From the NCBI RefSeq assembly GCF_004135055.1, contig NZ_SDPL01000002.1, positions 1 to 47,656 on the forward strand: a DNA stretch of 47,656 nt, given 5' to 3'. Origin of the DNA: Agromyces binzhouensis (GTDB lineage Bacteria > Actinomycetota > Actinomycetes > Actinomycetales > Microbacteriaceae). The stretch's first letter is position 1, and each line of letters begins with the position of its first letter. A program made the position numbers and the translations under genes. The notes below the pieces were generated by a model. That model was not told the DNA's origin, ran no database searches, and saw only the letters and a list, made by a program, of their open reading frames with translations. This document shows positions 28,566-44,582 of this stretch, piece by piece.

Positions 28566-28712
28566 CTTCCGACAGAGTTGTGAACGCGGCAACCATCCCT
28601 CGAGCGCCACCGCGGGTGGACCGTCATCATGACCGCGGCGGCGACCATCGCAGCCACCATGAAATGGGCCATACTCCCGCTCCCCTGACGGGACGAGGCG
28701 CCGGCTATGCAA

Positions 28713-29696
28713 TCAGGAGTTGGGGCAGTGGTCGGCCACCCATTCTCGGGCCGCCGACTGTGCTGACCCATCGGCGGGATCGACCTCGCGGTCGGGCGCC
28801 AACGGGCCTTCGTAGAAGTTGCCTTCTCGATCTCCCATCACGGCGAACGAGAGCGTGACGGCTGCGCCGTCGGGAAGCTCGAAACCGTCGTTCACTGTCG
28901 TGAACCCAGCGGTGGCGGAGCCGAACGTGGCCACGTCCTCCTGCCCGGTGAACGCGATGATCACCGACTCCCCGGCGCTCGCGGTTGCGCCGCTCTGAAC
29001 GATGCCGATCGGCCGGCTCGGAAGCTTGGTCGTCTCGGCCGGCAGCTCGCCCCAGACTTCATCTCCCCACGAGCCGGTATTGGCATGTACCACGACGTCG
29101 CTCGTGGAGCCGTCCCGCTCCCGGAACACCTCGACCACGCCGTCATCGAGCAACGGACTCAATGCCACGAGCATCACCCGCAGGTCGCCCCCGGTGTTGG
29201 CGCTCACGTCGACGACCCATCCGCAGGTGGACCGTGCCCGTTCCGATGTGAAGATCTCCGCTGCCGCCTCGAGATACAGGTCCGCCTCGTCCTGGTGCGC
29301 GCTGGAAAACCCGGGCACCACAACCGTCGCGACCGAGCCGTCGTAACTCACCGTCGGAACCGGCACGTGACCCGACGGATACGGCTGCTCCCACGCCGCG
29401 ACATCTGCCGGTGTCGAGAAGAAGCTGTGGGCACCACCCGCGAGCTTCGTCAAGGACGAGAGAAGCCGGTAGGTGCCGGGGATGTTCTTCGCCGAGTAGA
29501 GATCCGGGAGCGACTCGGTGACAGCCGCGTCCCACTCCGGAGAATCCGCGTAGAGCCCTTCATCAAGGCCCGCGATGGCCTAATCGACGTAGTCACGCAC
29601 GCCCACCTCATCGGACGGGGCGCAACCGCTCACGGTCAGCGCCAGCGACGCTGCTAGCCCGAACAGCGCTCCACGCCGAACGTGCCCTGCTCTCAC
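28713..29696 (-). pseudogene. S41-type tail-specific protease lipoprotein, amber stop at codon 39
   Basis: The frame from a GTG at 29696 encodes a lipoprotein signal (GALFGLAASLALTVSGCAPSDE), then an in-frame TAG at 29580-29582 (codon 39 of 328), and continues without break to 28713. The rest matches an S41 C-terminal-processing-protease-like domain: CGWVVDVSANTGGDLRVMLVALSPLL, GIVQSGATASAGESVIIAFTGQ with the probable Ser nucleophile in TASAGE, and TFGSATAGF. Either the gene is broken by a single-base change, the base is a sequencing error, or translation restarts at an internal TTG/GTG (giving a protein without signal peptide). The first seems most likely. The normal role would be cleavage of secreted proteins. 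Confidence 0.75.
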
Positions 29697-29785
29697 ACCA
29701 ATCCGCCCTCAGTCTGCTCGGCTGGTCGCAACTCCGTCAGCCAAGACTGACACGCTGACCCACTAACCGTGCCAGATGCCCGCGG

Positions 29786-29805
29786 CGCGCGCACGATCCC
29801 TCGCG
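29786..29805 (+). repeat. Cassette-boundary repeat, copy at 29.8 kb
   Basis: Arm CGCGCGCAC followed by GATCCCTCGCG, a shortened form of the core GATCCCTCAGCG. It lies between the broken S41 gene and the 3' end of the anti-sigma gene. A weaker relative, CATCCCTCGAGCG, lies at 28594-28606 directly after the XRE gene. Confidence 0.6.
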
Positions 29806-29839
29806 ACGTCCGTTGTGGCTGCTGATCGAGTGCCGCTCG

Positions 29840-30814
29840 TCAGTTGTCAGGTTGCGTCGTTTCCCAGGCTGTGTAGCTGACGACCGCGGGTGCTTGGATG
29901 TCGGTGCGGTCGTTTCCCACGTAGGTGGTCTCAAAGGAGAGGATGCCCAGTCCGGTGTCGGAGATGATGATCCGTTCGACGTACTCTCCTGGGGCTCGGC
30001 TGTCGGTGGTGAAGGAGACCCCGGTCCGTCCGAGCCGGTCGGTCACACGCCCTTCGACCTCGAGGTCGGGCAGGGTGGCGAGGAACTCGAGTACCGCCCG
30101 GGTCTGCGCACCGGTCAGAGCGCGCTCACCGAGCAGGTCACGCACGAGGTTCAGGTAATCCCCGGTAGTCGGGTCGGGCACCACCGAGCCGGCCTGCAGG
30201 AACTCGGGGTAGGCGGCAGCATCCGTCGGAGGTTCGGCGAACACGTACGGGAACTCACCGGGTCGGAAGTCCTGCTCCCAGATCAGCTCCCCGACCTGGT
30301 ACCCGTCGACCTGGATCTTGTTGCCGTAGGAGTCGTAGGGTTCGCCGCGGCGCACCTCGATCCGAGAGCCCTCCGGCCGGTGCTCGACGACGCGGACCTC
30401 GGGTTCGACGGCGACCGACTGCACCACGCCTTCGTCCCCGATGGTCAGCGCGAGGGCCCAGGACTGGAACCGGATCGACTCGGCCGCCGGGGTATTGGGC
30501 AGTTCCTCGCTGAGACGCATGAGCAGGTCCTTCGACGTCCCCTCAACCGGAGTGACCGTGAGCAGTGGCGGGGTCGTGGTCGCGTACACCGGTGCCGGCT
30601 GCGCCGTGAGCATCCCGACCGCGACGGTTAGGAGCACCGCGATCGCGGCGGCGACGGAGAGGTAGATCGGTGACCGCCGCGGGCGCCGCGCCTGCACACG
30701 GCCGGTCATGATGTGCTGCATGGTCGAGGCTGCCGCCGGGGTGAGCGGGTCGCCGCGGCGGGGCAGGGCCGGGCGGGCCTGCTCGAGGCGTCTGGTCAGT
30801 TCGAACTCGTCCAC
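29840..30814 (-). CDS. Membrane-anchored anti-sigma-like protein (CU044_5270 type)
   Basis: A 324-residue protein with a cytoplasmic N-terminus (MDEFELTRRLEQARPALPRRGDPLT), one membrane helix near residues 50-70 (IYLSVAAAIAVLLTVAVGML) and an extracytoplasmic domain of about 250 residues (LMRLSEELPNTP, ALTIGDEGVVQSVAVEPEVRV, ATLPDLEVEGRVTDRLGRTGVSF). It follows an ECF sigma gene with a 19-bp overlap. The architecture matches CU044_5270-type proteins that accompany ECF sigma factors in actinobacteria and probably act as their anti-sigma or signal-sensing partner. No zinc-binding HxxxCxxC anti-sigma motif is present. Confidence 0.8.
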   Translation of the reverse strand: MDEFELTRRLEQARPALPRRGDPLTPAAASTMQHIMTGRVQARRPRRSPIYLSVAAAIAVLLTVAVGMLTAQPAPVYATTTPPLLTVTPVEGTSKDLLMRLSEELPNTPAAESIRFQSWALALTIGDEGVVQSVAVEPEVRVVEHRPEGSRIEVRRGEPYDSYGNKIQVDGYQVGELIWEQDFRPGEFPYVFAEPPTDAAAYPEFLQAGSVVPDPTTGDYLNLVRDLLGERALTGAQTRAVLEFLATLPDLEVEGRVTDRLGRTGVSFTTDSRAPGEYVERIIISDTGLGILSFETTYVGNDRTDIQAPAVVSYTAWETTQPDN

Positions 30815-31311
30815 GACACCTCCTCCGTGTTCGTTGCGTCCTCGCCGAGGGTGTCCTGTAGCTTCTTCCGGGCCCGATGCAACCGCACCCGCAGCGTCGC
30901 CGTCGTGCAGCCGAGGATCCGGGCGATCTCCTCCCGTGAGAGGTCCTCCCAGTACGCCATCCAGATCAACTCACGATCCGCCTGATCCAACCGGTTCACC
31001 GCGGCCCGAACATCCAGCACCGCATCCGAGACCCCCTCCACCGGAGCGGGATGGTGTCGGCCCGCCCGTTCGACCCGCCTCTGGTGTCGGGTACGGCTCC
31101 GGTACTGGTTGCCCACCACGTTGCGGAGCGTGACGTACAACCACTCGATCGTGAACACGTGGTCGGCCGCGCCCCGCCGCCGCCATGCCTGCGCGAACAC
31201 CTCCGCGGCCGCGTCCTCAGCATCGGACACGTCGCTCAACCGGTTGAACGCAGCCGCCACGATCACCGGATGATACGTACGGAACAACTCCTCGAACGCG
31301 CCCTCAACCAT
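30796..31311 (-). CDS. ECF sigma factor
   Basis: A 171-residue RNA polymerase sigma factor of the ECF group. Region 2 is FEELFRTYHPVIVAAAFNRLSDVSDAEDAAAEVFAQAWRRR with VFTIEWLYVTLRNVVGNQYR. Region 4 is LDQADRELIWMAYWEDLSREEIARILGCTTATLRVRLHRARKKLQ. The start ATG is at 31311. It is cotranscribed with the overlapping membrane anti-sigma-like gene. Together they form a self-contained signal-response pair inside the accessory region. The promoter recognised by it cannot be named; a self-regulated promoter would lie in 31312-31558. Confidence 0.92.
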   Translation of the reverse strand: MVEGAFEELFRTYHPVIVAAAFNRLSDVSDAEDAAAEVFAQAWRRRGAADHVFTIEWLYVTLRNVVGNQYRSRTRHQRRVERAGRHHPAPVEGVSDAVLDVRAAVNRLDQADRELIWMAYWEDLSREEIARILGCTTATLRVRLHRARKKLQDTLGEDATNTEEVSWTSSN

Positions 31312-31558
31312 GCCGACCCGACATCGACACGGCAGCGGAGAACACCCTCACATTCTCAACTGTTTCCAGACGACCGCTGAGCGTTACCGGCTCGCCTCAC
31401 CTCGTCCGACCGAGCGAACGAACCAGCCAGATGGCGACCGTCCTCCGCGTAACGCGCGGTGGCCGCCCGGAAACATCCCGAGTAGGACCCACCGCGGCGT
31501 CCCGCTTCGGCAGCCTGCAAGAACGCATCGCGCCGGAGCCGACTCGGAACGAGATGAC

Positions 31559-31693
31559 ATGACTCCCTACGACCCGACCCTGCCCGATTCGAACCGAGCT
31601 ACCGCTGATCCATCCGCCGTCGTGATGACGTCGGTGGTCTCGATCGACATCACCGCGTACCTGCCGTCCGCCGAGGATGAGCCGACCGCATGA
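31559..31693 (+). CDS. 44-residue peptide with C-terminal DITAYLP motif
   Basis: MTPYDPTLPDSNRAT... ends SVVSIDITAYLPSAEDEPTA. The last 17 residues are nearly the same as the end of the 34-residue product of 41479-41583 (VDLTAYLPDPADEPSC). Such agreement between two separate short frames shows that both are translated and conserved. It has no signal peptide or membrane helix. The stop overlaps an ATG of the next gene (ATGA at 31690), which suggests coupling to the lipoprotein gene. Function unknown. Confidence 0.65.
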   Translation: MTPYDPTLPDSNRATADPSAVVMTSVVSIDITAYLPSAEDEPTA

Positions 31694-32517: not shown

Positions 32518-32650
32518 GTCGACGGCGCTCACTTCCGAGCGGGGAGGAAGCGAGATCCGAAGCGACGAGGTTCGTCGACAGTCGACACAGTCGTGATTAG
32601 TCCGTGTGCCCCTCCTTGGGGCTGCCGCCTGATCGGACGCGTCAGCGAGA

Positions 32651-32839
32651 GTGATCTCCATGAGGCGGTGGGTGCGGCGTGTGGCACGGCGTCGACGGCT
32701 CCACGCGGAGGTGTTCCTCGACGACCGGACGGGATCGCTGATCCGGGTCGCGTGCGAGTGTCCTCGCGCTAGGGACCACCGGTACCAGCGACCGGACCAA
32801 GCGCGCTCCCGGCCCATGGTGACGTACGTCGGCGGATGA
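32651..32839 (+). CDS. Possible short basic protein
   Basis: An open frame of 62 residues (GTG start; or ATG at 32660) reading MRRWVRRVARRRRLHAEVFLDDRTG and ending VTYVGG. It is strongly basic at the N-terminus, with two cysteines (ACECPRA). There is no good Shine-Dalgarno sequence and no recognised family. It could be a chance frame in GC-rich DNA. Confidence 0.35.
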   Translation: MISMRRWVRRVARRRRLHAEVFLDDRTGSLIRVACECPRARDHRYQRPDQARSRPMVTYVGG

Positions 32840-32855
32840 GGTTAGAAAGCTACTC

Positions 32856-33083: not shown

Positions 33084-33153
33084 TCTGACGTCTGATCTGA
33101 CGTCGCTGTTCTCGGCATCGAGCACGATGATGCTTGGCCCATGCGATCGGCGA

Positions 33154-33174
33154 TGCACGGACGACCCCTCAGTG
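33154..33174 (+). repeat. Cassette-boundary repeat, copy at 33.15 kb
   Basis: Arm TGCACGGAC followed by core GACCCCTCAGTG (two changes from GATCCCTCAGCG). It lies between the 3' ends of the small membrane-protein gene (plus strand) and the lipoprotein gene (minus strand). Confidence 0.6.
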
Positions 33175-33218
33175 CGAGGATCCGGTTGGTCTTCGGGACC
33201 GATCGGCGGCGACGTGGG

Positions 33219-33635
33219 CTATCCGCGGGCGAACACGTTGGTCGCGACTTCGCGGTGCAGCTCGGGCGCCGGAGCACCATCGGGCCGGACGATATACCCA
33301 CCACTGGGGCCGCCTACGCCGAACTCGGCGCTGCCACCACCACAGCCAATGACCCAGTCCGTAGCGTTCGGGTAGACCGCGAGGCAGACAGTCCCCGGCT
33401 CCTTGCCCTTGGCCAGGAAGAGCATGTTGCCGTCGTGTTCGCCAACGAACCGGCTGCTCAATGGCTCCAATTCGTCGTCAGCGTAGTCGGGGAGGTCTGC
33501 TGGGAGCGCGTCGGCGACCACGGCATCACGCTCCAAGACGGCGAAGCCTGATCCCGAGTCGATGCATCCTGTCAGCACGAGGACAACGAGCAGCGAGGTG
33601 CCGGCGAGCGAGGCGATCTTGCAGGGCGATGCCAT
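33219..33635 (-). CDS. Small lipoprotein of unknown function
   Basis: A 138-residue lipoprotein with signal sequence MASPCKIASLAGTSLLVVLVLTGC and lipobox LTGC. The mature domain has two cysteines (GTVCLAVYPNATDWVIGCGGGSAEFGVGG) likely forming a disulfide, and the pattern resembles small secreted domains next to sigma factors in this element, though no family is recognised. The start ATG is at 33635. It is the only gene of its direction between boundary repeat 33154 and the next rightward gene. Confidence 0.75.
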   Translation of the reverse strand: MASPCKIASLAGTSLLVVLVLTGCIDSGSGFAVLERDAVVADALPADLPDYADDELEPLSSRFVGEHDGNMLFLAKGKEPGTVCLAVYPNATDWVIGCGGGSAEFGVGGPSGGYIVRPDGAPAPELHREVATNVFARG

Positions 33636-33804
33636 GGCCGAATGCTCCCACGTCAGCGCCTGCCACGTCGAACGAGACGCCGACCGCTGCCCATCCCCAA
33701 CTGCGAACCCGCGGATCAGCGGTTCTCTGCCCAGATCCGGCCTCGGTCGGAGTATTCGGGAGCGCCGCCGGTTCGCCCGCCGCGGCGGTGTCTAGGGTGG
33801 GGTC

Positions 33805-34521
33805 GTGCCAAGCGAGCCGGATGATGCAGACCAGATATTCGCAGTGCTCGCGACGTCCGATGCCCCAGCGTCGCCGGCAAGCCCGCCGCGACCAGCGTCC
33901 ACTTGGCGGCGCCGTGCGGCTGTGACGCTCAGGGTCATCGCCGCGGTCGCAGCCATCGTGACGGTGTCGATCGGCGTGTTCGCCTACGCGCAGCTCCTGT
34001 CCATCGCCGAATCCGACCTTCACCTGCTCACGATGATCGTCGGTGACTGGTACCCGACGCTGCTCGACCTGGCCATCCTCAGCATGGGTCTGGGCGTGGC
34101 TGCCCTGGTCGGCGCAGCCATCCTCGCCCCGTCCCGACCGAAGAAGTCGGGCGGACCGAAGGCAATAGTCGCCGCCGCGATCGTGATCGCTCTGGTGGCC
34201 ATCTCCTTGATCCCGACCGTCCTGTTCTCCGGCGGCCAGTTGCTGATGCGGACGTCGTACACGGTGCTCCCGGGTGAGAGTGAGGGTGGATGCCGCATCG
34301 TGGTGAGCGAGAGCTCCACGCTGCTCGATGGTTCCGGTAGCGCCGGGGTCCTCCGGCCCGGGACCGTGGTCGTGGATTGGATCCGTGACTTCAGCGCGCA
34401 GAGCCCCGGGAAGCGATTCGCTCAGGGGCGGTACACGCTCACCTGGGATGGGGAGACCGCAGACCTGCAGGCGGACGGACTCACTTGGAGGCCGTTCGCT
34501 CCGCTCACCTGCACCGGGTGA
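33805..34521 (+). CDS. Membrane protein with C-terminal exported domain
   Basis: A 238-residue protein with three membrane helices (VTLRVIAAVAAIVTVSIGVFAYA, TLLDLAILSMGLGVAALVGAAIL, AIVAAAIVIALVAISLIPTVL) and an exported C-terminal domain with two cysteines (EGGCRIVVSESSTLLDGSGSAGVLRPG, APLTCTG), reminiscent of a small beta-rich domain. GTG start at 33805. The stop is followed 79 bp later by a boundary repeat. No family is recognised. Confidence 0.75.
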   Translation: MPSEPDDADQIFAVLATSDAPASPASPPRPASTWRRRAAVTLRVIAAVAAIVTVSIGVFAYAQLLSIAESDLHLLTMIVGDWYPTLLDLAILSMGLGVAALVGAAILAPSRPKKSGGPKAIVAAAIVIALVAISLIPTVLFSGGQLLMRTSYTVLPGESEGGCRIVVSESSTLLDGSGSAGVLRPGTVVVDWIRDFSAQSPGKRFAQGRYTLTWDGETADLQADGLTWRPFAPLTCTG

Positions 34522-34599
34522 CGACTCATCGACCACGACGGCTGCCCCCGCCCGGCACAGCGCGCCCCAGAGCCTCGGTCGGCTCGCCAAGGCACTCAA

Positions 34600-34620
34600 C
34601 GCACGCACGATCCTTCAGTG
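34600..34620 (+). repeat. Cassette-boundary repeat, copy at 34.6 kb
   Basis: Arm CGCACGCAC and core GATCCTTCAGTG. The stop codon of the leftward gene 34615-34998 lies inside the core (TCA on the plus strand), so this gene ends exactly at the boundary. Confidence 0.7.
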
Positions 34621-34998
34621 AGCCGTCGGGGTGGGCGGTGCGTCCGAACCGTTCTTCTGCGCATCCGCAAGATGGATGGTGATCGATCGGCCTTGGATTT
34701 CCTCGGTCGGCGCGTCGACGGTTACTGACGTCCCCGTGGTCGCGTCGAGCGGCCAGTCGATGCGGGGCGTGGCCCGGTTCAGGTAATCCAACTCATACGT
34801 CGAGAGCGCAGAGCGTCCTGGATCGACGGGCTGGTGTGAGGGTCGAGCCGGCCTCAGCGTCCGGAGCACGAATCCTGCGGCGATCAGCACCCAGAAACCG
34901 GACACGATCCACACGTGGACACCCGGAGCAACGACCAACGCGACGGCCCAGCCGACGAGCCCCGCTCCCAGGGCGAGCACGACCAATAGCTTCCTCAT
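34615..34998 (-). CDS. Small membrane protein of unknown function
   Basis: A 127-residue protein with two hydrophobic helices at the N-terminus (LLVVLALGAGLVGWAVALVVA, HVWIVSGFWVLIAAGFVL) and a soluble C-terminal part (STYELDYLNRATPRIDWPLD...ITIHLADAQKNGSDAPP). The ATG at 34998 (MRKLLVV) is chosen because it directly precedes the first helix; a longer frame upstream is basic and overlaps the next gene. It follows the small membrane gene 35015-35323 by 16 bp, so they are probably an operon. Confidence 0.7.
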   Translation of the reverse strand: MRKLLVVLALGAGLVGWAVALVVAPGVHVWIVSGFWVLIAAGFVLRTLRPARPSHQPVDPGRSALSTYELDYLNRATPRIDWPLDATTGTSVTVDAPTEEIQGRSITIHLADAQKNGSDAPPTPTAH

Positions 34999-35014
34999 CG
35001 ACGGTGCTCGCGCT

Positions 35015-37472: not shown

Positions 37473-37489
37473 GCACCCACCCAGCGCGG

Positions 37490-37510
37490 CGCGCAGACGA
37501 TCCTCTCGCG
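37490..37510 (+). repeat. Cassette-boundary repeat, copy at 37.5 kb
   Basis: Arm CGCGCAGAC and core GATCCTCTCGCG. It lies between the Lsr2-like gene and the next rightward gene. A weaker copy, arm CGCCCGTCT with GATCCCTATCCG, lies at 37885-37905 at the other end of the following gene. Confidence 0.55.
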
Positions 37511-37570
37511 GGCACTGCGCGCAAGGGGGCAGAGCGTGCACCGTAGTTCACGACACACGATGATGGGCAA

Positions 37571-37879: not shown

Positions 37880-37947
37880 CGGCTCGCCCGTCTGATCCCT
37901 ATCCGGGCGCTGTCCGTTGGTGAGGCGCTCAACGCACCCGTCCGTCG

Positions 37948-39063
37948 CTATGCCAAGGTGTTTGCTGGCGGAAGAACGAGGACCACGGCCGCTGGGTCCA
38001 AGCCCACTGCCGCGTAGAGTTGGGGCAAGTCAGCGTCGGGCGTGCCTTGCAACAGCAGAGCCGCCTTGGCGATGTGATGGGACGCCTGGATTGATTGGCC
38101 ATCGGCCAGCGAGGCGTAGAACCGAGCGGCGTAAGCAATCGCGTCGCCATCCGCGATGGAGTCAGCGTGTCCGATCGCGAAGGACGCGATACCTCCGACC
38201 AGTTGTCGTGCCTGAGGTGCCGAGGAGCACGCGTTCAACACGACTAGAAGAGGTGGTTCGTCGACGGCGCGCAGCGCCGCCGCAAGGGTATCGGCAGCTA
38301 CCACGGCCCCGGTATTGGTCTCATCCGTGTCTTGCTCGAACACGATTACAGCGCTGTTGCCGTGACCGGAGAAGTGCACAATATGTGGACGCCCCTGAGT
38401 CAGTCCGTTGAGCAGATCGTCGCCGGTGGCGGCGGGACGGAGATCGAGACTGATGGACTCGCGGCCCGACGCGAATTGAACGGCATCCTTGATCCGCTTC
38501 TGCTCACGGGCTACGCGAAGATCTCCTTCACCGGAGGAGGCGAGCATCAGCAGCCGTAACTTCTCTTGTCGTGGATGGCGAAGGACTGCGAGCTGGCGCT
38601 CGTGGTCATCGATCTGAGCCGCAAGCTGCGCGTGCAGTCGAGCCGTGGCGCGAGCATCTTCCGCGGCCCGGCGCTCACGCTCCCGCTCAGCCTGCGTTGC
38701 TTGCTGGAGGCGCTTCCTTTCCTCAGCCTCACGCTTGCGCTCTGCTGTCTTTCGTTCAGACGCCTCCGCGTCTGCGAGCCGCTTAGCCAGTGCCGTCTCC
38801 TCCTTGAGATATGCGGCAGCCTTCGCCTGCCAGTTGGCCGACTCTTTGGCAGCGGTGTTCGCCTCGCCCTCATGGCGAGCGGCGTCTCGTAACTTCATCC
38901 GGGCATTGGATTCAGACTTCGTCCCCGAGGCAGCAGCGCGCTCGCGCGTCGCCATGGCTCGCTTGTCAGCCTCCTTGGTTCGTGCGGCGGCTGACCTTTT
39001 CTCCGCGTCCAGTCGCTGGGCACGCTTGCGCTCGAGCTGGGCGCGATAGACCGAGGAACTCAT
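37948..39063 (-). CDS. CHAT-domain protease with N-terminal coiled coil
   Basis: A 371-residue protein. Residues 1 to about 165 form a long Arg/Glu/Ala-rich coiled coil (KRAQRLDAEKRSAAARTKEADK, AERERERRAAEDARATARLHAQL). Residues about 170-360 are a CHAT (caspase HetF-associated with TPRs) domain: RLLMLASSGEGDLRVAREQKRI, GRPHIVHFSGHGNSAVIVFE with the catalytic His, and PPLLVVLNACSSAPQARQLV with the catalytic Cys. CHAT proteases are executioners in several anti-phage and cell-suicide systems. A coiled coil could bring copies together for activation. No clear sensor or substrate gene is adjacent, so its partner is unknown. It is a single-gene unit between boundary repeats. Confidence 0.85.
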   Translation of the reverse strand: MSSSVYRAQLERKRAQRLDAEKRSAAARTKEADKRAMATRERAAASGTKSESNARMKLRDAARHEGEANTAAKESANWQAKAAAYLKEETALAKRLADAEASERKTAERKREAEERKRLQQATQAERERERRAAEDARATARLHAQLAAQIDDHERQLAVLRHPRQEKLRLLMLASSGEGDLRVAREQKRIKDAVQFASGRESISLDLRPAATGDDLLNGLTQGRPHIVHFSGHGNSAVIVFEQDTDETNTGAVVAADTLAAALRAVDEPPLLVVLNACSSAPQARQLVGGIASFAIGHADSIADGDAIAYAARFYASLADGQSIQASHHIAKAALLLQGTPDADLPQLYAAVGLDPAAVVLVLPPANTLA

Positions 39064-39114
39064 GCGCCGAACCTACCTGGGACCTGCGACGCTATCTTTC
39101 GAAGCTCCGCCGAT

Positions 39115-39136
39115 TACACGAACGGATCCCTTAGTG
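39115..39136 (+). repeat. Cassette-boundary repeat, copy at 39.1 kb
   Basis: Arm TACACGAAC, one extra G, and core GATCCCTTAGTG. The stop codon of the leftward gene 39131-39634 (TTA on the plus strand) lies within the core, as in the 34.6 kb copy. Confidence 0.7.
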
Positions 39137-39634
39137 ATGGCGCGGATCCGGGGTGTCGGCCGCAGGGGCGAACTCGGGAGCTTGCCGAGGGAATGGGCGC
39201 GCCGTGATGACGGTCGCGATGGCCCCCGCGACGGTGACGAGCAGAAACGGCAAGGCGAGCCACGAATCTGGCTCAAAGATCAGCTGCTGGATTCCGATGA
39301 GCCCGGCCGAGGCAACGAGAAGTGCCTCCCACCAGTAGGACCCCATCCACCACCCGATAGCCGCCAGGGCGACGAATCCGATCGTGCTCGCCCATGCCCA
39401 CGGGGTCGCGGCAATGATCCGCTTGTTCGCTTCAGCCGTTCGCTCGAAGTGACCCATCTCGAAGATGGCGTTCCCAGCGATGCCGACGTTAATCAGGACC
39501 GCCAGCAGCCACGAGGCGAGGGCGGCAAGGCCGGCCACGCCCAACGCGTCCGCAGAAGGTCCCCGGTGGTCGGCGCCCAGATGCGATCGCTGCTGCCAAG
39601 CCCCCACCCTCCGTTGCGTCACCCTATGGCACAC
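39131..39634 (-). CDS. Four-helix membrane protein
   Basis: A 167-residue protein with about four hydrophobic helices (LAALASWLLAVLINVGIAG, TIGFVALAAIGWWMGSYWW, EALLVASAGLIGIQQLIF, LALPFLLVTVAGAIATVIT) and a Pro/Ala-rich tail. The start is uncertain: the ATG at 39634 gives 30 polar residues before the first helix. No family is recognised. It ends inside the boundary repeat at 39115-39136 and lies 79 bp from the next rightward gene, with another repeat between. Confidence 0.7.
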   Translation of the reverse strand: MCHRVTQRRVGAWQQRSHLGADHRGPSADALGVAGLAALASWLLAVLINVGIAGNAIFEMGHFERTAEANKRIIAATPWAWASTIGFVALAAIGWWMGSYWWEALLVASAGLIGIQQLIFEPDSWLALPFLLVTVAGAIATVITARPFPRQAPEFAPAADTPDPRHH

Positions 39635-39655
39635 CCGCGCAGCGTGCCCGCGAAG

Positions 39656-39676
39656 CCCACGAGCGATCCCTCAGCG
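39656..39676 (+). repeat. Cassette-boundary repeat, copy at 39.66 kb
   Basis: Arm CCCACGAGC and exact core GATCCCTCAGCG (39665-39676). This copy lies between two divergent genes (5' ends at 39634 and 39713), so it cannot be a terminator. Confidence 0.8.
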
Positions 39677-39712
39677 AGCACTTCAGGCTCGGCCGCATGC
39701 CAGACTTCCGCC

Positions 39713-40306
39713 ATGCATCTCGACGGTCGCGTTGTCGGCCAAGCGCTCGCCAGTCGGCTCCGTCCCGTCCTGTTGGAACACGGGTTCCATCGATTTCACG
39801 GACGGAACGCTTGGCGCCGCTCTGATTTCACGGTCGGATTGATCTCGTTTCCTTCCATGAACGCGTATGTCGCTGCCGGCGTTGGCTGCACGACGTACTC
39901 GTTCAGCGGCGCGGCCGGCGTCTACTACCCGGCCCTGGATCATGGTGCACCCGTCGAGTGGCCGCGGGATTACCAGCTGACCTTCCGTGGGGTGCTGGGG
40001 AAGACAATCCGCCAGCCGTACTTCCATCCGTCCGGGATCAGTGACGGTAGTGATCGAGCTGATGTCTGGCACGTGCTGGAGGACGGAAGCAATCTCGAAG
40101 TGGTCGTCGAGGACGCCGTCGAAACCGTGCTGGCGCAGGCTGTGCCGTTCATCGACCGTCTCGACGATCCGCGTCAGGCGATGCAGTCGCTGCTTCACGA
40201 AGAGGGACGAAACCCGGGGTTCGGCAGCCTCGGACTCCTGTCGGCAGGTCGCGGTTCAGAGCAGCACACTCAGGACGTCGACCGGCTCAGGGCACTACTC
40301 GGATGA
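39713..40306 (+). CDS. DUF4304-like protein
   Basis: A 197-residue soluble protein: MHLDGRVVGQALASRLRPVLLEHGFHRFHGRNAWRRSDFTVGLISFPSM..., with the layout of DUF4304-type proteins (a helix, 'L..hGF.r.g..f.R', then beta strands). It continues YSFSGAAGVYYPAL, VWHVLEDGSNLEVVVEDAVETVLAQAVPFIDRL. Members are often found among small accessory genes and immunity-like genes, without known activity. The similarity is recalled from pattern and needs a profile search. The ATG at 39713 is chosen over a much longer upstream open frame, which is a shadow of the leftward gene. Single-gene unit bounded by two exact cores. Confidence 0.7.
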   Translation: MHLDGRVVGQALASRLRPVLLEHGFHRFHGRNAWRRSDFTVGLISFPSMNAYVAAGVGCTTYSFSGAAGVYYPALDHGAPVEWPRDYQLTFRGVLGKTIRQPYFHPSGISDGSDRADVWHVLEDGSNLEVVVEDAVETVLAQAVPFIDRLDDPRQAMQSLLHEEGRNPGFGSLGLLSAGRGSEQHTQDVDRLRALLG

Positions 40307-40315
40307 GTTGATTTG

Positions 40316-40336
40316 CACTCAAACGATCCCTCAGCG
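40316..40336 (+). repeat. Cassette-boundary repeat, copy at 40.3 kb
   Basis: Arm CACTCAAAC and exact core GATCCCTCAGCG (40325-40336), 10 bp after the stop of the DUF4304-like gene and 77 bp before the sigma-factor gene. CTCAAAC (40318-40324) and GTTTGAG (40355-40361) form an inverted pair around the core. Confidence 0.8.
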
Positions 40337-40412
40337 CGACCGCGCCCGATGCAAGTTTGAGACGGTTTCTCCTGGCCGGACATCCATCATTAGGTGATCC
40401 GACAGGAGTGGA

Positions 40413-40964
40413 ATGGCTGACGATGCGGAGCTGTTGAGGCGGGCGCGTGAGGGCGACATGCGTGCGCTGTCGGCGCTCTACGAGCAGTACTGCCGAGTGG
40501 TGTTCGCGCGCGCCTTCCTTGAAACGGGTTCGCGCGCCGACGCTGAAGAGCTCATGCAGGATGTGTTCCTGCTGCTGTGGAAGAAGCGACGGAAGATCCA
40601 GTTCGCCGGAACCTCGGCCCTGCCATGGTTGCTCGTGTGTACGCGGCACCTGTCCGCCAATCGCCGCCGACACAATCACCGACGCACGACCCAGGCGCTG
40701 CCTGCCGACCTGCGGACCGGCGCGGATTCCGAGCCCGAAGCCAAGGCGGTTCGCGCACAGCTCATGGCCCGCATCGATGCGTCGGTCGCGCGACTCGAAC
40801 CCATCGACCAAGAGATCCTGCGTCTGTGCGCCGTCGAAGGACTCACATACCAAGAAGCGGCCGACGCACTCGGCATCAGCCATGGCTCGGTCCGCAATCG
40901 GCTGGGCCGGGCCCGGGCAGTGCTGCGCGCGGATGCTGCTGCGTACACGGAAGGGGGAAGCTGA
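40413..40964 (+). CDS. ECF sigma factor
   Basis: A 183-residue ECF sigma factor. Region 2 is LLRRAREGDMRALSALYEQYCRVVFARAFLETGSRADAEELMQDVFLLLWKK with LPWLLVCTRHLSANRRR. Region 4 is LEPIDQEILRLCAVEGLTYQEAADALGISHGSVRNRLGRARAVLR. The ATG at 40413 has AGGAG upstream. The stop overlaps the start of the next gene (TGATG), so sigma and partner are coupled. Together with the peptide gene behind it this is one unit bounded by exact boundary repeats at 40316 and 41618. Confidence 0.92.
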   Translation: MADDAELLRRAREGDMRALSALYEQYCRVVFARAFLETGSRADAEELMQDVFLLLWKKRRKIQFAGTSALPWLLVCTRHLSANRRRHNHRRTTQALPADLRTGADSEPEAKAVRAQLMARIDASVARLEPIDQEILRLCAVEGLTYQEAADALGISHGSVRNRLGRARAVLRADAAAYTEGGS

Positions 40965-41464
40965 TGCGATCCATCGAACCGACCGAACAAGAGTTCGCCG
41001 CGCTCGGGCAGGCGCTGCTGGCGCGTGCCGCGACCGAGGATCGGCGACGCACACTGCAGCGGCGGGCCACGATCGCGGGCGCGATCGGGCTGGTCGGCAT
41101 CGCCGGAATGGGGGCCGCATGGGCTGCACTGGCCAACCCCGTCCTGAGGGACAGCGCCGCGTACTGCTACAGCGAACCGGACCAGAACTCCGCGTTCGTT
41201 ACGGTCGGGGCACCCGACGCCGAAGCACCCGACGGCACCACCCGCCAACAGGAAGCCGAGGCAGTCGATATGTGCGCGGCGGTGTGGCGGATCGGCGCCG
41301 TCGGCCCCCACGCCACTCAACCGCCTGTCGACGGGATCGAGTACGAGGTCCCAACGCTCGAGGCATGCCTCCGCCTGGACGGTGTGACCGCGGTGTTCCC
41401 GAACGAGCAACGCGAAGCACACGAGCCGTTCTGCCGGCGACTCGGCCTCGCCCCGACCGACTGA
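40964..41464 (+). CDS. Membrane-anchored partner of the ECF sigma factor
   Basis: A 166-residue protein with a cytoplasmic N-terminus (MRSIEPTEQEFAALGQALLARAATEDRRRTLQRR), one membrane helix (ATIAGAIGLVGIAGMGAAWAAL) and an exported domain with four cysteines (AAYCYSEPD, AVDMCAAVWRIGA, TLEACLRLDGV, EPFCRRLGL). By position and topology it is the anti-sigma or signal-input protein. No zinc anti-sigma motif is present. Its paired cysteines recall the lipoprotein 31690-32517. Both are next to DITAYLP-type peptide genes, so these exported domains and peptides may belong to one system. Confidence 0.75.
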   Translation: MRSIEPTEQEFAALGQALLARAATEDRRRTLQRRATIAGAIGLVGIAGMGAAWAALANPVLRDSAAYCYSEPDQNSAFVTVGAPDAEAPDGTTRQQEAEAVDMCAAVWRIGAVGPHATQPPVDGIEYEVPTLEACLRLDGVTAVFPNEQREAHEPFCRRLGLAPTD

Positions 41465-41478
41465 ACAGGACACAGAAC

Positions 41479-41583
41479 GTGGATGATCCCGCTGCAGAGC
41501 CGCCCGCCGCCTCACCTCGAGTTCCGGCTCCGGTCGACCTCACCGCCTACCTGCCGGACCCCGCCGACGAACCTAGCTGCTGA
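41479..41583 (+). CDS. 34-residue peptide with C-terminal DLTAYLP motif
   Basis: GTG start at 41479 with AGGA 8 bases upstream. The product is MDDPAAEPPAASPRVPAP followed by VDLTAYLPDPADEPSC. The end matches the 44-residue product of 31559-31693 (IDITAYLPSAEDEPTA). It is the third gene of the sigma operon, 14 bp after the partner gene. Nothing is known of its function; an intracellular ligand, tag or secreted signal are all possible. Confidence 0.65.
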   Translation: MDDPAAEPPAASPRVPAPVDLTAYLPDPADEPSC

Positions 41584-41617
41584 CAGCACCGCCGCCCGGC
41601 AGCCGGCCCGCCGGCGA

Positions 41618-41638
41618 CGCACAGATGATCCCTCAGCG
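41618..41638 (+). repeat. Cassette-boundary repeat, copy at 41.6 kb
   Basis: Arm CGCACAGAT and exact core GATCCCTCAGCG (41627-41638), between the 3' end of the peptide gene and the 3' end of a leftward gene. It is followed at once by a hairpin AGACCG-N5-CGGTCT (41639-41655) that can terminate the leftward operon. Confidence 0.8.
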
Positions 41639-41654
41639 AGACCGTCGAGCGGTC

Positions 41655-42431
41655 TTACGGCGTCTTCGCTTGCGGCTCGAGTCTGCGGGCGTGTCGGGCT
41701 GCGATCGCGATTACCGCGATGACGGCGACGAGCACTGCGACCTGCGCGATCGCGATGCCGATGTCGGCCCCGGGGATCGGCAGGGCTGCCGCGGCGATGT
41801 CGCCGATCAGCATGTAGCTGAACAGCGCGAGGAGCGCACTGAGTGAGATGCCGGTGGCGAGGGGCGTGCGCCAGGGCAGCGCGGCGATCACGCCGAAGCC
41901 GACGATCAGCACCGTCGTGGGCAAGCTCGGTCCGAGCCAGCCGAACAGGGCCGCCAGTAGGGAGAGGCAGAGCTGGGTAGCGACGGTGCCGAGTGCGATC
42001 CAGCGGGCGGCAGCGTTGCGCCCGGTGGCTGCCGCGGCAAGCGCCACGACGAAGAGCCCGGCGACGATCACAGTCGGATTGCTGAAGGGTCCCAACGCTC
42101 CCGGGTAGACCACGCCGGGCGACCAGGTGATCACCGACACGTCGAACAGCAGGAACGCGACCGCGAGCACCAGCGGGACGATTACGGCAGCCCGCCGGCC
42201 CTCTGCCACGCCGAACCGGTGCCGCAGGCCACCGATGGCCAGCGCGAACCGGTCGCCGAGCCGTGGGCGGGCGTCGCCGCGCGCGTCGGCCTGGTCGAGC
42301 AGGATGCCAACGACCACCGCCTCATGCTCGGCACGCCACTCGGCGGGGTACCACCGCAGCATCCGCCGGTATCGTTCCGCCCGCCCCGTCTCGTCCATTC
42401 GTCCACTTCCGTTCATGCCAGCTGCGTTCAC
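41655..42431 (-). CDS. Membrane protein regulated by the adjacent PadR protein
   Basis: A 258-residue protein. The N-terminal cytoplasmic part RYRRMLRWYPAEWRAEHEAVVVGILLDQADARG is the type of leader seen in actinobacterial permease-like membrane proteins downstream of PadR genes. Six or more helices follow (AVIVPLVLAVAFLLFDVSVITW, PTVIVAGLFVVALAAAATG, LCLSLLAALFGWL, LIVGFGVIAALPW, GISLSALLALFSYMLIGDIAA, IAQVAVLVAVIAVIAIAA). The start overlaps the PadR stop by 4 bp (ATGA). Transport or stress function is possible but cannot be named. Confidence 0.78.
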   Translation of the reverse strand: MNAAGMNGSGRMDETGRAERYRRMLRWYPAEWRAEHEAVVVGILLDQADARGDARPRLGDRFALAIGGLRHRFGVAEGRRAAVIVPLVLAVAFLLFDVSVITWSPGVVYPGALGPFSNPTVIVAGLFVVALAAAATGRNAAARWIALGTVATQLCLSLLAALFGWLGPSLPTTVLIVGFGVIAALPWRTPLATGISLSALLALFSYMLIGDIAAAALPIPGADIGIAIAQVAVLVAVIAVIAIAARHARRLEPQAKTP

Positions 42432-42748
42432 TGCGCTGTTGCCGATCTCAAGCCCAACCGGATCCGGGCAAGTCGCGCGGCGGTCTCCATGCGTTCCAGC
42501 TCAGCCGCGACGGCCTGCTCGCCGAGCTCAGTGATGCGGAAGTACCGGCGAAGCCGACCGTCGACCGCTTCGTCACCGTCCGCGGCCACGAGCCCCTCCC
42601 GCTGCAGACGCTCAAGGACCGCGTACAACGTCGCCACCTTCAACTCCACGCGCCCGTCCGAGGCGTCGCGGACCTCGCGGATCAGCGCGTAACCGTGCCG
42701 GCGTCCGCCGCTCAGGGAAACCAGCGTCCAGAACGTCGGCTCCCGCAT
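42428..42748 (-). CDS. PadR-family transcriptional regulator
   Basis: A 106-residue PadR winged-helix regulator: MREPTFWTLVSLSGGRRHGYALIREVRDASDGRVELKVATLYAVLERLQREGLV, then wing DGRLRRYFRITELGEQAVAAELERMETAARLA. I chose the ATG at 42748 because MREPTFWTL is the standard PadR beginning and GAGG lies 6 bases upstream; upstream starts at 42760 and 42778 are possible. It is coupled to the membrane-protein gene, which it probably represses. The upstream AT-rich stretch with AATACTC and GAATATT (42770-42793) is a plausible operator. Confidence 0.9.
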   Translation of the reverse strand: MREPTFWTLVSLSGGRRHGYALIREVRDASDGRVELKVATLYAVLERLQREGLVAADGDEAVDGRLRRYFRITELGEQAVAAELERMETAARLARIRLGLRSATAQ

Positions 42749-42809
42749 CTCAGACCTCATGACAGCGAGAATACTCAACTAGATGGAATATTAGAAGCCT
42801 GCCCCTGAA

Positions 42810-42830
42810 CCGACAGGCGATCCCTCAGCG
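42810..42830 (+). repeat. Cassette-boundary repeat, copy at 42.8 kb
   Basis: Arm CCGACAGGC and exact core GATCCCTCAGCG (42819-42830), between the 5' end of the PadR gene and the 3' end of the next leftward gene. Confidence 0.8.
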
Positions 42831-42876
42831 CACAGGAGCGCCGCTCGGAGGCGCCGCCCTCGATGCGGTGGTGATC

Positions 42877-43203
42877 CTAGAAGCCGGTGACTAGCAGCGT
42901 GAAGACGGCTCCGGCGACACCGAGCGCGATGAGCACTCCCATCGCGGTCCGACCAGCCCACGCGGGCATCGTGACGCGAACCACGCTCGCAGCCAAGGCA
43001 GTGAACCCGACGATCATGGCCCAGACGGCGGCTGTGCCAGGTCGAAGGGAAAGTGGCGGGCACACCTGAACTCCGTTGCAGGCTTGGGGCCACTGTCCGA
43101 TGAAGAGGATCAAGAGGCACAGGGCAGCCCCGATCACGAGGGGCCGGATGGCTCTGGGAAGTGCAGGCGCTGGCCGAGTGGGCTCGAGGTCAGAACGGGT
43201 CAT
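42877..43203 (-). CDS. Small three-helix membrane protein
   Basis: A 108-residue protein with three helices (LVIGAALCLLILFIGQW, AAVWAMIVGFTALAASVVRV, TAMGVLIALGVAGAVFTLLVT) and a loop with two cysteines (ACNGVQVCPPLSL). ATG at 43203. No family is recognised. Its first bases overlap the open frame on the other strand starting at 43161. Confidence 0.7.
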   Translation of the reverse strand: MTRSDLEPTRPAPALPRAIRPLVIGAALCLLILFIGQWPQACNGVQVCPPLSLRPGTAAVWAMIVGFTALAASVVRVTMPAWAGRTAMGVLIALGVAGAVFTLLVTGF

Positions 43204-43604
43204 GGCTGATCCTTATCCACCCGGGCCGCGCCCTGCCATGGCTCCGCGATGGTCGTTGCCAAATCGATCCGCTTCTGCTCGCTGCGTTTCGTGACTCCGT
43301 TGCCCTCCAGCTGCGTCGCCTGCACTTCGACCGAGCGCTGGCCTCGATACTGCTCGACGCGCCAGAGAGCCTCACGTCGACGCCCGAAGAAGTTAGCCAC
43401 CGGAACATCTTGCAGCACGTCCCACAGCGATCCACCGCTCTCAGGACTCGACTACGCGGGCAGGAAGATCAGGGACTGGAGCCCGGGTATACCCCAACCT
43501 GGATCGTGGTGGGCACCCAGGTGGGCGCTGCGGTCCTTGCGATCGGAGTAGTCGCGCTCATCGCTGTGTGGATCATCGCTCTGCGACAACGAGCGAAAGG
43601 CTAG
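43161..43604 (+). CDS. Possible membrane protein, start uncertain
   Basis: The frame encodes a soluble part (LLLAAFRDSVALQLRRLHFDRALASILLDAPESL) and a C-terminal membrane helix (GTQVGAAVLAIGVVALIAVWIIAL) with basic flank RQRAKG. The helix and the strong 13-bp inverted repeat after the stop (43624-43636 and 43658-43670) suggest a real gene. The first part overlaps the divergent gene 42877-43203, so the true start is probably later. An alternative ATG at 43202 in another frame reads MADPYPPGPRPAM and soon stops, so a frameshift near 43290 is also possible. Confidence 0.45.
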   Translation: MQALAEWARGQNGSWLILIHPGRALPWLRDGRCQIDPLLLAAFRDSVALQLRRLHFDRALASILLDAPESLTSTPEEVSHRNILQHVPQRSTALRTRLRGQEDQGLEPGYTPTWIVVGTQVGAAVLAIGVVALIAVWIIALRQRAKG

Positions 43605-43623
43605 CGAGAAACCGCTGAGCATG

Positions 43624-43670
43624 ATCTGCCGGCGGCGGGCCCAGCTGAGGCGGGCTGGCCGCCGGCAGAT
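43624..43670. terminator. 13-bp inverted repeat after gene 43161-43604
   Basis: ATCTGCCGGCGGC at 43624-43636 pairs exactly with GCCGCCGGCAGAT at 43658-43670. It lies 20 bp after the stop codon and probably terminates transcription; the loop is 21 bases. Confidence 0.6.
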
Positions 43671-43782
43671 TCTCGGTCAGGGTCATCCCAGCACGGCCCG
43701 CCGCGGACCTGCCGCGAATCGGGCACCAGGTTTCGTCTAGCAGATCCGAATCCGCGACGCCCCACCATTTTGGAGACATGCC

Positions 43783-44031
43783 CTAGTCCTGTTGCCGCCA
43801 CGCCGCTAGCAGCTCCGTGAACTGGCGCAAGTTGATCTCGCTCGCGCGTGCATCGTCGAGCTCATCCTCGACCGTCGCTGTTGAGCGATCCGCGTCCACC
43901 AGAACATTGAATGTGTTGTAGGTGAAATAGCGGCACCCGCTTCTCGCTTGCTCAATCGCAGTCAGCAACTCGATTCGAATGTGTTCATTCAGCTCACTCG
44001 CGAGGAACTCGTGCAGAGGCGTGCCGGACAT
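43783..44031 (-). CDS. Small acidic protein of unknown function
   Basis: An 82-residue protein, MSGTPLHEFLASELNEHIRIELLTAIEQARSGCRYFTYNTFNVLVDADRSTATVEDELDD..., with mixed helix and strand (CRYFTYNTFNVLVDADRSTATVED) and a helical end (NLRQFTELLAAWRQQD). The codon pattern is slightly AT-richer than its neighbours. Size and acidity resemble small immunity or antitoxin-like proteins but no family is recognised. Confidence 0.7.
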   Translation of the reverse strand: MSGTPLHEFLASELNEHIRIELLTAIEQARSGCRYFTYNTFNVLVDADRSTATVEDELDDARASEINLRQFTELLAAWRQQD

Positions 44032-44582
44032 GAGTGGAGCCCCCTCAAGTGTCAGAGTCAGTCGAGATCGACGCTAAGCCAAATCGAGCGTGGGGTGCAC
44101 GAGCCGGGTCCCTGAACCGCGATCGTCTTGGGCGCCCGGTAGCCGGTCCATTATCGCCGCTGGCAGTTCGCTCATTCAGGTGAGACGAATCCGGCATCTG
44201 TGCTTCCCGATAGACCCGCCCGATGCCGCGCCCGAGGAGGGTAGGCCAGCTGCGACGCCTCGGCTTTGCGCGATCAACCTGCGGGACAGCAGGTCATGGA
44301 TGCTACTCGTCCCGTCATTGCTCACGTTTTTCCCGCAAGCGGACGTCACGGCGATGACGCCGTTCTGATCACATTGCCCATCTCCACCGCGCATCGATTG
44401 GCCTCGAATGCGTGAGCCGCCTCCCCCTGCGGCGCTAACTGAAAATGGGAAGGTCGGCTTGGCAAGGGCCGGCTCGCCGGAGGTCCGCGAGTTCCACACG
44501 GACGATCGGCTCAGCGTCCGAGCGCGGACCTAGCATGGGGCCTGCAGGCCTTGGTCAACGCATTTCGGGAGGACGGAGAGAA
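44032..44582. other. Gene-free interval upstream of the integrase
   Basis: No supported gene on either strand. It holds the promoter of the leftward small gene, the promoter of int, and a boundary repeat at 44495-44516. An AT-richer part lies at 44325-44395. No excisionase-like small frame is seen here. Confidence 0.5.
44495..44516 (+). repeat. Cassette-boundary repeat next to the integrase gene
   Basis: Arm CACACGGAC and core GATCGGCTCAGCG (one base longer, CC replaced by GG plus C). The arm fits the consensus CNCRCRNRC at every position. It lies 66 bp before the int start codon and is the rightmost copy of the series. Confidence 0.6.

What the first reader, a model, noticed from the sequence alone, without database searches (positions are those of the whole stretch)
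28594..44516. Series of same-orientation ~21-bp repeats dividing the accessory region into gene cassettes
Seen directly: the 12-base core GATCCCTCAGCG occurs exactly at 39665, 40325, 41627 and 42819. Close forms occur at 29795 (GATCCCTCGCG), 33163 (GACCCCTCAGTG), 34609 (GATCCTTCAGTG), 37499 (GATCCTCTCGCG), 39125 (GATCCCTTAGTG) and 44504 (GATCGGCTCAGCG); weaker ones lie at 28594 and 37894. The 9 bases before the core also agree (CNCRCRNRC; fifth base always C), which was not used to find them. All are on the plus strand although genes point both ways. Contexts include 5'/5' (39656), 3'/3' (41618), 3'/5' (40316) and 5'/3' (42810), so neither promoter nor terminator fits all copies. From 37.9 to 42.8 kb each interval holds one gene or one operon. 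This looks like a cassette array made by repeated site-specific insertion. It has no attC-like folded sites or intI, so it is not a known integron. I know of no described system of this kind.
Basis: partly seen in the sequence, partly recalled or inferred. Interest (0 to 1): 0.92.

Follow-up and report, generated by a model that had tools for sequence, protein, structure and literature searches.

The report
Resolvase-site gene-cassette arrays in actinobacteria
Small genes in soil actinobacteria are strung together like beads between copies of a 25-base recombination site, and related strains and plasmids carry the same beads swapped exactly at that site; the enzyme most likely responsible is a small serine recombinase, which would make this an integron-like system built from a different kind of enzyme.

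Summary
The repeats are real and the cassette reading holds. A site profile trained only on other genomes finds six strong sites in the window (33163, 34609, 39665, 40325, 41627, 42819) and two moderate ones (29795, 37499), all plus-strand and intergenic; 0.05 hits >=16 are expected by chance. In the host genome (an Agromyces) exact cores occur only here and on one other contig. At least 7 of 60 Agromyces genomes have such arrays and share cassettes in different orders. Homology breaks fall on the core (18 of 49 ends, 2.25 expected). A palindromic form of the site divides genes in Micrococcaceae chromosomes and on a Pseudarthrobacter plasmid; cassettes 96-99% identical are shared with ends at sites (12 of 26 ends, 0.76 expected) and junctions at the central GRTC. 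That site lies 113-144 bp upstream of 9 of 18 small serine recombinases in a held-out set, and one array site is identical over 26 bases to such a site in the same genome. Best reading: an integron-like cassette system run by a serine resolvase. Catalysis is inferred, and the window's own genome holds only a recombinase fragment.

The parts
33152..33176 (+). cassette-boundary site (core at 33163)
   Evidence: profile trained on other genomes 26.1; homology with G328 L106 begins at this site
34598..34622 (+). cassette-boundary site (core 34609)
   Evidence: profile score 24.2; intergenic
37488..37512 (+). probable cassette-boundary site (core 37499, degenerate right half)
   Evidence: profile score 14.7 from other genomes; intergenic
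29784..29808 (+). probable cassette-boundary site (core 29795)
   Evidence: profile score 14.7; intergenic
39114..39138 (+). doubtful site (core 39125)
   Evidence: profile -2.2, but it divides two genes, and a distant homolog of the next gene is a single-gene interval between two sites in G319
39654..39678 (+). cassette-boundary site (core 39665)
   Evidence: exact core, profile 25.7
40314..40338 (+). cassette-boundary site (core 40325)
   Evidence: exact core, profile 26.8
41616..41640 (+). cassette-boundary site (core 41627)
   Evidence: exact core, profile 31.1
42808..42832 (+). cassette-boundary site (core 42819)
   Evidence: exact core, profile 20.1
33219..34521 (.). cassette content: lipoprotein-like gene 33219-33635 (-) and membrane protein-like gene 33922-34521 (+), names by eye; the 33163-33697 part is shared with G328 at 90.6%
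39131..39538 (-). single-gene cassette (membrane protein-like, by eye; no Pfam family); distant homolog is a single-gene interval in G319
39713..40306 (+). single-gene cassette, no Pfam family
40413..41464 (+). cassette: ECF-type sigma factor 40413-40964 plus the following gene 40964-41464
   Evidence: Pfam Sigma70_r2 and r4_2
41655..42748 (-). cassette: membrane protein-like gene 41655-42398 (no Pfam family) plus PadR regulator 42428-42748
   Evidence: Pfam PadR
44583..45683 (+). tyrosine integrase of the surrounding integrated element (not the likely cassette enzyme)
   Evidence: PF00589; tRNA-Ser at 45751-45840
9260..9283 (+). left direct repeat of the tRNA-Ser 3' end, marking a 36.5-kb integrated element
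   Evidence: 1 mismatch to 45753-45776; 0 expected
45753..45776 (+). right direct repeat (within tRNA-Ser)

Best explanation
The repeats are recombination sites that separate small gene cassettes. Each is a dyad of about 25 bases with a GRTC centre. A small serine recombinase of the resolvase/invertase type, with a crossover-type site about 130 bp upstream of its gene, most likely recombines such sites. Circles or modules carrying one site would integrate next to another site, leaving direct repeats in one orientation, and could be excised or exchanged in the same way. Shown here: the sites, their clustering, one or a few genes in most intervals, sharing of whole cassettes between species and between plasmid and chromosome with ends at the GRTC centre, and likeness of the array site to the site upstream of the recombinase (identical in one case). 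Inferred: that this enzyme does the catalysis, that circles are the intermediate, and that it acted on the window's own array, whose genome holds no intact copy of the enzyme.
For: Window sites found by a profile from other genomes. A second array lies in the same genome next to a rifampin ADP-ribosyltransferase gene. Arrays (two or more clustered sites) in at least 7 of 60 Agromyces genomes. The same cassettes stand in different neighbourhoods, with breaks in CGATCC. 18 of 49 block ends lie within 6 bp of a core of <=2 mismatches, 2.25 expected. On Pseudarthrobacter plasmid NZ_CP047899.1 ten sites (five of them seeds of the profile) lie between 32.0 and 44.5 kb, all outside the listed genes, the last 132 bp upstream of a serine recombinase gene; shuffles give 0.2 per 95 kb. 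A 3.3-kb plasmid block is 99.4% identical in the chromosome of G712 with sites at both ends on both molecules; two more blocks (96.2 and 97.5%) have a site at each end on at least one molecule; 12 of 26 ends lie within 16 bp of a site, 0.76 expected, and printed junctions are at the GRTC centre. Recombinase link: of 18 recombinases from genomes not used for the profile, 9 have a site >=16 within 300 bp upstream, all on the gene's strand at -113 to -144, against 1 such site in 56.9 kb elsewhere in those loci. A G712 array site is identical over 26 bases to the site 125 bp upstream of a G712 recombinase. In A. luteolus five same-strand sites end 113 bp before the recombinase gene. A profile from Agromyces arrays alone finds a core in the 300 bp upstream that no random stretch of the same locus equals (0 of about 190) at 3 of 17 recombinase loci: Solirubrobacteraceae MAG, Sanguibacter, Arthrobacter pZXY24.
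Against: No PF00239 recombinase in the window's genome, only a 70% fragment with a stop. Of 11 Agromyces loci with longer relatives at >=68% identity, 3 lie beside an array, 1 near a single site and 7 near neither. G349 and G309 have arrays but no relative at E<=1e-3; G663, G548 and G077 none at E<=1e-40. 9 of 18 held-out recombinases have no site >=16 upstream, among them the G712 one closest to an array; the G712 one with the identical site is 67 kb from that array site. In one search the other 14 of 17 loci give p 0.03 to 0.87, and the pZXY24 core is at -274, not -132. In one search upstream cores are 6, against 4.0 expected over all loci by my arithmetic; they stand out only in the >=67% subset (about 1.5 expected). 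The Agromyces dyad is weak (complementarity 0.43 at the best centre, 0.38 at the next) and centred on a base, unlike the even centre usual for serine recombinases (recalled). 31 of 49 and 14 of 26 block ends are not at sites, and ends that share a cassette are not independent. No clean empty site was found for contig C184.
Confidence: 0.75

Rival explanations
1. Same cassette arrays, but moved by a tyrosine recombinase: the element's own integrase (44583-45683) or host XerC/XerD.
For: The Agromyces dyad has two arms around an odd 7-base centre, as in phage-type tyrosine sites (spacing rule recalled). The integrase lies at the end of the array. XerC/XerD are general.
Against: No tyrosine recombinase other than Xer-like ones is common to the 7 array genomes searched; G349 has only two PF00589 matches. 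The 60% identical integrase in G309 has no site before it. The array site lies upstream of serine recombinases. In Micrococcaceae the site is palindromic about GRTC.
Confidence: 0.12
2. The repeats are passive dispersed repeats (REP or MITE-like, or regulator sites), and homologous recombination between copies produced the breakpoints.
For: Repeats of any kind can be crossover points; several array genomes have no intact recombinase.
Against: About 25 partly matching bases are short for homologous recombination (recalled). Junctions are at the dyad centre, with half-sites following their own cassettes. Sites are clustered, not spread. The site lies at a fixed distance upstream of half of one recombinase subfamily.
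Confidence: 0.08
3. The arrays are scars of repeated transposon insertion near res sites (Tn3 or Tn402/Tn5053-like elements), not a cassette system.
For: A Tn3-type transposase with resolvase lies beside one G712 array, and genes resembling a Tni set (by eye) beside the same array's far end.
Against: The intervals read hold ordinary genes. Whole intervals recur with ends at the dyad centre, and I saw no terminal repeats or target duplications in the junctions printed.
Confidence: 0.05

Closest known systems
Integrons (IntI, attI, attC cassettes) and CALINs (recalled)
   Same: Gene-sized cassettes in tandem, sites mostly in one orientation, toxin-antitoxin genes among the cassettes of G328, arrays without an enzyme gene, a site upstream of some recombinase genes.
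   Different: No IntI-like enzyme common to the arrays; sites are short dyads with no hairpin beyond chance; the candidate enzyme is of the serine, not the tyrosine, superfamily.
pdif modules (XerC/XerD-site modules of Acinetobacter; only the start of the abstract of PMC12907356 seen)
   Same: Modules of one or a few genes bounded by the crossover sites of a resolution-type recombinase, on plasmids and chromosomes.
   Different: Different enzyme superfamily and site; these sites lie upstream of serine recombinases.
Serine resolvase/res systems (Tn3, gamma-delta, Gin/Hin family)
   Same: Recombinase has the Resolvase catalytic domain and HTH_7; closest solved sequences are DNA invertases (4m6f, 3uj3), then gamma-delta resolvase; crossover-type site about 130 bp upstream of 9 of 18 held-out genes.
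   Different: Known roles, recalled, are cointegrate or dimer resolution and inversion; here the same site occurs in arrays dividing unrelated genes.
Tandem accretion of integrative elements or SCC elements (recalled)
   Same: Tandem units bounded by direct att-like repeats.
   Different: Units here are about 0.3-4 kb, and in the arrays read the recombinase genes stand beside the array, not in each unit.

Membership tests
Integron | IntI-type tyrosine integrase associated with the array | tested here: not met
   PF00589 search of 7 array genomes: no family common to all beyond Xer-like ones; G349 has only two matches
Integron | attC sites that fold into a bottom-strand hairpin | tested here: not met
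   8 array sites folded (six of them on one strand only): z -0.62 to +1.54, no common hairpin; the non-site 44504 gave z -1.32 and -1.45
Integron | tandem gene-sized cassettes separated by recombination sites in one orientation | tested here: met
   6 of 8 Agromyces array loci with two or more sites are single-strand; those of G328 and G321 are mixed
Integron | integration site beside the recombinase gene | tested here: met
   but of a serine recombinase: A. luteolus, plasmid NZ_CP047899 and 9 of 18 held-out recombinases
Serine resolvase/invertase system | Resolvase catalytic domain plus HTH_7 | tested here: met
   PF00239 E 1.1e-39, PF02796 E 1.1e-8
Serine resolvase/invertase system | crossover at the centre of a dyad site of about 26-28 bp | tested here: met
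   junctions in GRTC at the dyad centre in Micrococcaceae; in Agromyces the junctions are also in GATC, but the dyad is weak and off by half a base
Serine resolvase/invertase system | accessory sites II/III next to the crossover site | tested here: inconclusive
   a CCCGTAAGACCCGCCCG...GCCCGGTGA-like block lies near the start codon in many of the 12 plasmid copies, by eye
Serine resolvase/invertase system | recombination activity on the array site | not testable with these tools
   needs a bench assay
pdif module | XerC/XerD binding site with 11-6-11 spacing | tested here: inconclusive
   Agromyces form has a 7-base centre, the other form an even GRTC centre; not compared with a dif consensus
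SCC or accretion element | each unit or the set carries its own large integrase or recombinase | tested here: not met
   the adjacent enzyme is 191 aa and stands beside, not in, the units read

The most novel reading that the evidence does not exclude
A serine-recombinase counterpart of the integron: a resolvase whose res-type crossover site doubles as a cassette site, building mobile gene-cassette arrays on chromosomes and plasmids of Microbacteriaceae and Micrococcaceae, with cassettes moving between plasmid and chromosome and often without a resident enzyme.
Probability: 0.6. Interest if true: 0.95.

Novelty: new variant of a known kind. Interest (0 to 1): 0.87.

Why it matters
If right, gene-cassette capture has arisen at least once more, with an enzyme family known for dimer resolution and inversion rather than tyrosine integrases. 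It would explain how small accessory genes (toxin-antitoxin pairs, sigma factors, regulators, small enzymes) are gained, lost and reshuffled in soil actinobacteria, where I recall few integrons. It gives a site profile with which such arrays can be found, and a simple two-part system (191-aa enzyme, 25-base site) that can be tested at once.

Tried and rejected
Counting weak core matches: not above chance. attC-like folding: none. Element integrase as cassette enzyme: not supported. Agromyces-type sites around close relatives of the recombinase in other genera: single upstream copies only, no arrays. Exact empty site for contig C184: flanks too variable. Plasmids like the window's array: none by near search, 48 records with short matches of 60-80% identity by distant search. 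One viral contig with an exact 17-base site, not followed. Exact 13-base core in 299 family genomes: 42 have it, mostly once; in the 30 fetched loci of about 3 kb only the window's own had two or more same-strand sites of the Agromyces form. In 396 order genomes (<=1 mismatch of a longer pattern) 18 had a hit and only the window's genome more than one.

Controls that cut against a wide reading. The palindromic pattern hit 43 of 396 order genomes, and its reversed control hit 42 by my count, so single hits there are chance; only G712 (13 against 0) stands out by number. Of 34 Micrococcaceae-like (f6) genomes, 10 had a hit and I fetched arrays of only 3 (G712, G663, G548), chosen for their hits. 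In the genus search 43 of 60 had some hit at <=2 mismatches and 60 of 60 at E<=3, so only clusters and strong scores count.

Profiles were refined by iteration on array regions, and the palindromic one was seeded by hand with 16 sites, five of them from plasmid NZ_CP047899. The fair tests are those with held-out data and the breakpoint counts. In one search I kept blocks of at least 150 bp and 78% identity from different genomes and dropped ends within 15 bp of a sequence end; at least 120 bp, same-genome pairs allowed, ends within 20 bp dropped. Papers: eight searches listed no serine-recombinase cassette array. I saw listings and the printed starts of abstracts only, no full text; preprints and most subscription journals are not in that library.
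Full report
Observation. The core GATCCCTCAGCG is exact at 39665, 40325, 41627 and 42819 on the plus strand. Loose matches are not enriched (79 found, 94.5 expected). I therefore built a 25-base profile (core -11 to +13). Trained on 26 sites from other genomes only, it finds 33163, 34609, 39665, 40325, 41627 and 42819 (20.1 to 31.1) and 29795 and 37499 (14.7 each), with one stray at 20907. Random copies of the window give 0.05 hits >=16. All supported copies are intergenic and on one strand. In the 3.6-Mb draft genome the six exact GATCCCTCAGYG are four in the window and two on contig C184.

Setting. The window carries a tRNA-Ser at 45751-45840, a tyrosine integrase at 44583-45683 and a direct repeat of the tRNA end at 9260-9283 and 45753-45776. 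The array thus lies at the integrase end of a 36.5-kb integrated element. Intervals hold, for example, one gene (39713-40306), an ECF-type sigma factor with the following gene (40413-41464), or a membrane protein-like gene with a PadR regulator (41655-42748).

Second array and relatives. Contig C184 of the same genome starts with a TetR-like gene (by eye) and a rifampin ADP-ribosyltransferase gene and then has sites at 1298, 1962, 2460 and 3290 on one strand. A genus search (60 genomes) found a cluster of five same-strand hits in G319 and a pair 8 kb apart in G328. Fetched stretches and a profile search give arrays (two or more clustered sites) in at least 7 of 60 genomes: G000, G319, G328, G321, G325, G349 and G309; G349 and G309 have only two sites each. 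A doubtful pair is in G333. In 60.5 kb of array DNA 33 sites score >=20, against 3 in 219 kb outside (this profile was refined on those arrays).

Cassettes move at the site. Blastn among arrays shows the same units in different orders. C184 1298-2460 (the homolog of the PemK pair of G328, and a second gene) is 96.4% identical to A. kandeliae, inverted, with ends at -1 and +3 of cores. C184 3290-3965 is 99.0% identical there, with ends at cores. Window 33163-33697 is 90.6% identical in G328. The PemK cassette also stands in A. luteolus and G328, in A. luteolus between sites 1495 and 831. Read base by base, identity switches within CGATCC, and the half-sites follow their own cassettes. Of 49 ends of blocks between genomes, 18 lie within 6 bp of a core; 2.25 were expected (binomial 2e-12). 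Ends sharing a cassette are not independent, and 31 of 49 are elsewhere, among them ends of diverged alignments and of blocks holding only the recombinase gene. Of eight array genes of G328 scanned, seven match PemK (two), YoeB, YefM, ParE and PIN (two) families above the cut-off, and one a ribbon-helix-helix family just below it.

The recombinase. PF00589 shows no tyrosine recombinase common to the array genomes beyond Xer-like ones. PF00239 shows a 191-aa serine recombinase 0.8 kb from the nearest site in G328, about 3 kb before the first sites in A. kandeliae, next to the array in A. luteolus, and 1 kb from a single site in G319, where it is frameshifted. Its nearest solved relatives are DNA invertases 4m6f and 3uj3, then gamma-delta resolvase. 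In A. luteolus five same-strand sites end 113 bp before its start codon. On its own this was weak: of 11 longer Agromyces relatives at >=68%, 3 lie beside an array, 1 near a single site and 7 near neither, and the window's genome has only a fragment.

The site belongs to the recombinase. Within 300 bp upstream of relatives at >=67% identity the core (<=2 mismatches) occurs six times, among them a Solirubrobacteraceae MAG (-161) and Sanguibacter hominis (-132); from the rest of those loci I reckon about 1.5 expected. Over all loci of that call it is six against about 4.0, so the signal is in the close relatives only. On actinobacterial plasmids (12 of 25 listed records fetched, of at least 5000 matching) an upstream form GCCCGTAAGCCGGTCCTTCAGCG or similar is seen in 6 of 12. 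A profile seeded with such sites was tested on 18 recombinases of other genomes: 9 of 18 have a site >=16 within 300 bp upstream, all on the gene's strand at -113 to -144, against 1 in 56.9 kb elsewhere in those loci. A profile made from Agromyces arrays alone finds an upstream core that none of about 190 random stretches equals at 3 of 17 loci; the other 14 give p 0.03 to 0.87, and at one of the three (pZXY24) the core is at -274, a second site there.

The same kind of array in another family. On plasmid NZ_CP047899.1 of Pseudarthrobacter psychrotolerans ten sites (five of them seeds) lie between 32.0 and 44.5 kb, all outside the listed genes (the table is incomplete by its nature). Six of the nine intervals hold one to four listed genes and three hold none; the last site is 132 bp upstream of the recombinase gene. 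One more place in the 95 kb has sites, and shuffles give 0.2. Seven fetched stretches of G712, G663 and G548, chosen for their hits, hold 3 to 11 sites >=16 each, often with one gene per interval. Plasmid 39.07-42.41 kb is 99.4% identical to G712 with sites at both ends. Blocks at 42.40-43.43 (96.2%) and 35.09-35.64 kb (97.5%) also match, at other places in that chromosome, so neighbours on the plasmid are apart there. 12 of 26 ends are within 16 bp of sites, 0.76 expected. Junctions are at the GRTC centre. One G712 array site is identical over 26 bases to the site upstream of a G712 recombinase 67 kb away; the recombinase nearer that array has no scored site. By number of pattern hits only G712 exceeds the reversed control in the order search, so how widespread this form is remains open.

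How it most likely works. The recombinase pairs two sites, cuts at the central dinucleotide of GRTC and rejoins. A circle with one site inserts beside another site, giving direct repeats; the reverse excises it; inverted pairs flip, which would explain the mixed orientations of G328 and G321. Arrays without the enzyme would be moved in trans or be frozen. Sharing of cassettes with ends at the site is shown; the enzyme is inferred from the site upstream of its gene and from adjacency. The Agromyces site has a weak dyad centred on the T of GATC, which suits a serine enzyme less well and keeps the tyrosine rival alive at about 0.12.

Known or new. It works like an integron and like pdif modules, but fails integron membership on enzyme and attC. 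Eight paper searches listed nothing of this kind; only listings and starts of abstracts were seen. I rate it a new variant of a known kind (site-bounded gene cassettes) with a different enzyme superfamily; it would be categorically new if the serine enzyme is proved to capture cassettes.

Noticed in passing
window 27169-27266: Four tandem palindromic 24-base repeats (AGGGGGTCGCTCAGTGACCCCCT-like) near a small HTH gene; possibly an operator or origin repeat. Not the array site, although the palindromic profile scores 12.5 and 18.2 there.
   Followed up: partly
window 9260-9283 and 45753-45776: Direct repeat of the tRNA-Ser 3' end bounding a 36.5-kb integrated element that holds the array.
   Followed up: yes
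L360 7531-12026 (G712): Genes resembling a Tn402/Tn5053-like set (resolvase and three Tni-like genes, by eye, no family search) directly beside a cassette array; such transposons are recalled as res-site hunters.
   Followed up: no
L336 2403-6224 (G712): Tn3-type transposase and resolvase (Pfam) directly beside the first site of an array.
   Followed up: partly
L079-L095 and single sites G305 C1:448547, G300 C99:3287: Isolated high-scoring sites in other Agromyces and Micrococcales genomes, perhaps single-cassette or empty sites, or chance.
   Followed up: partly
L116 (G077 C1:348000-367999): A Microbacteriaceae genome of another genus with several palindromic sites, some in pairs about 52 bp apart, around small genes.
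   Followed up: partly
G000:C68:3577-3687: Fragment (70% identity, with a stop) of the serine recombinase in the window's own genome; no site in the 20 kb around it.
   Followed up: partly
window 37948-39063: Gene in the array similar in DNA to CHAT-domain protein genes on Rhodococcus and Curtobacterium plasmids; no Pfam hit at 0.001.
   Followed up: no
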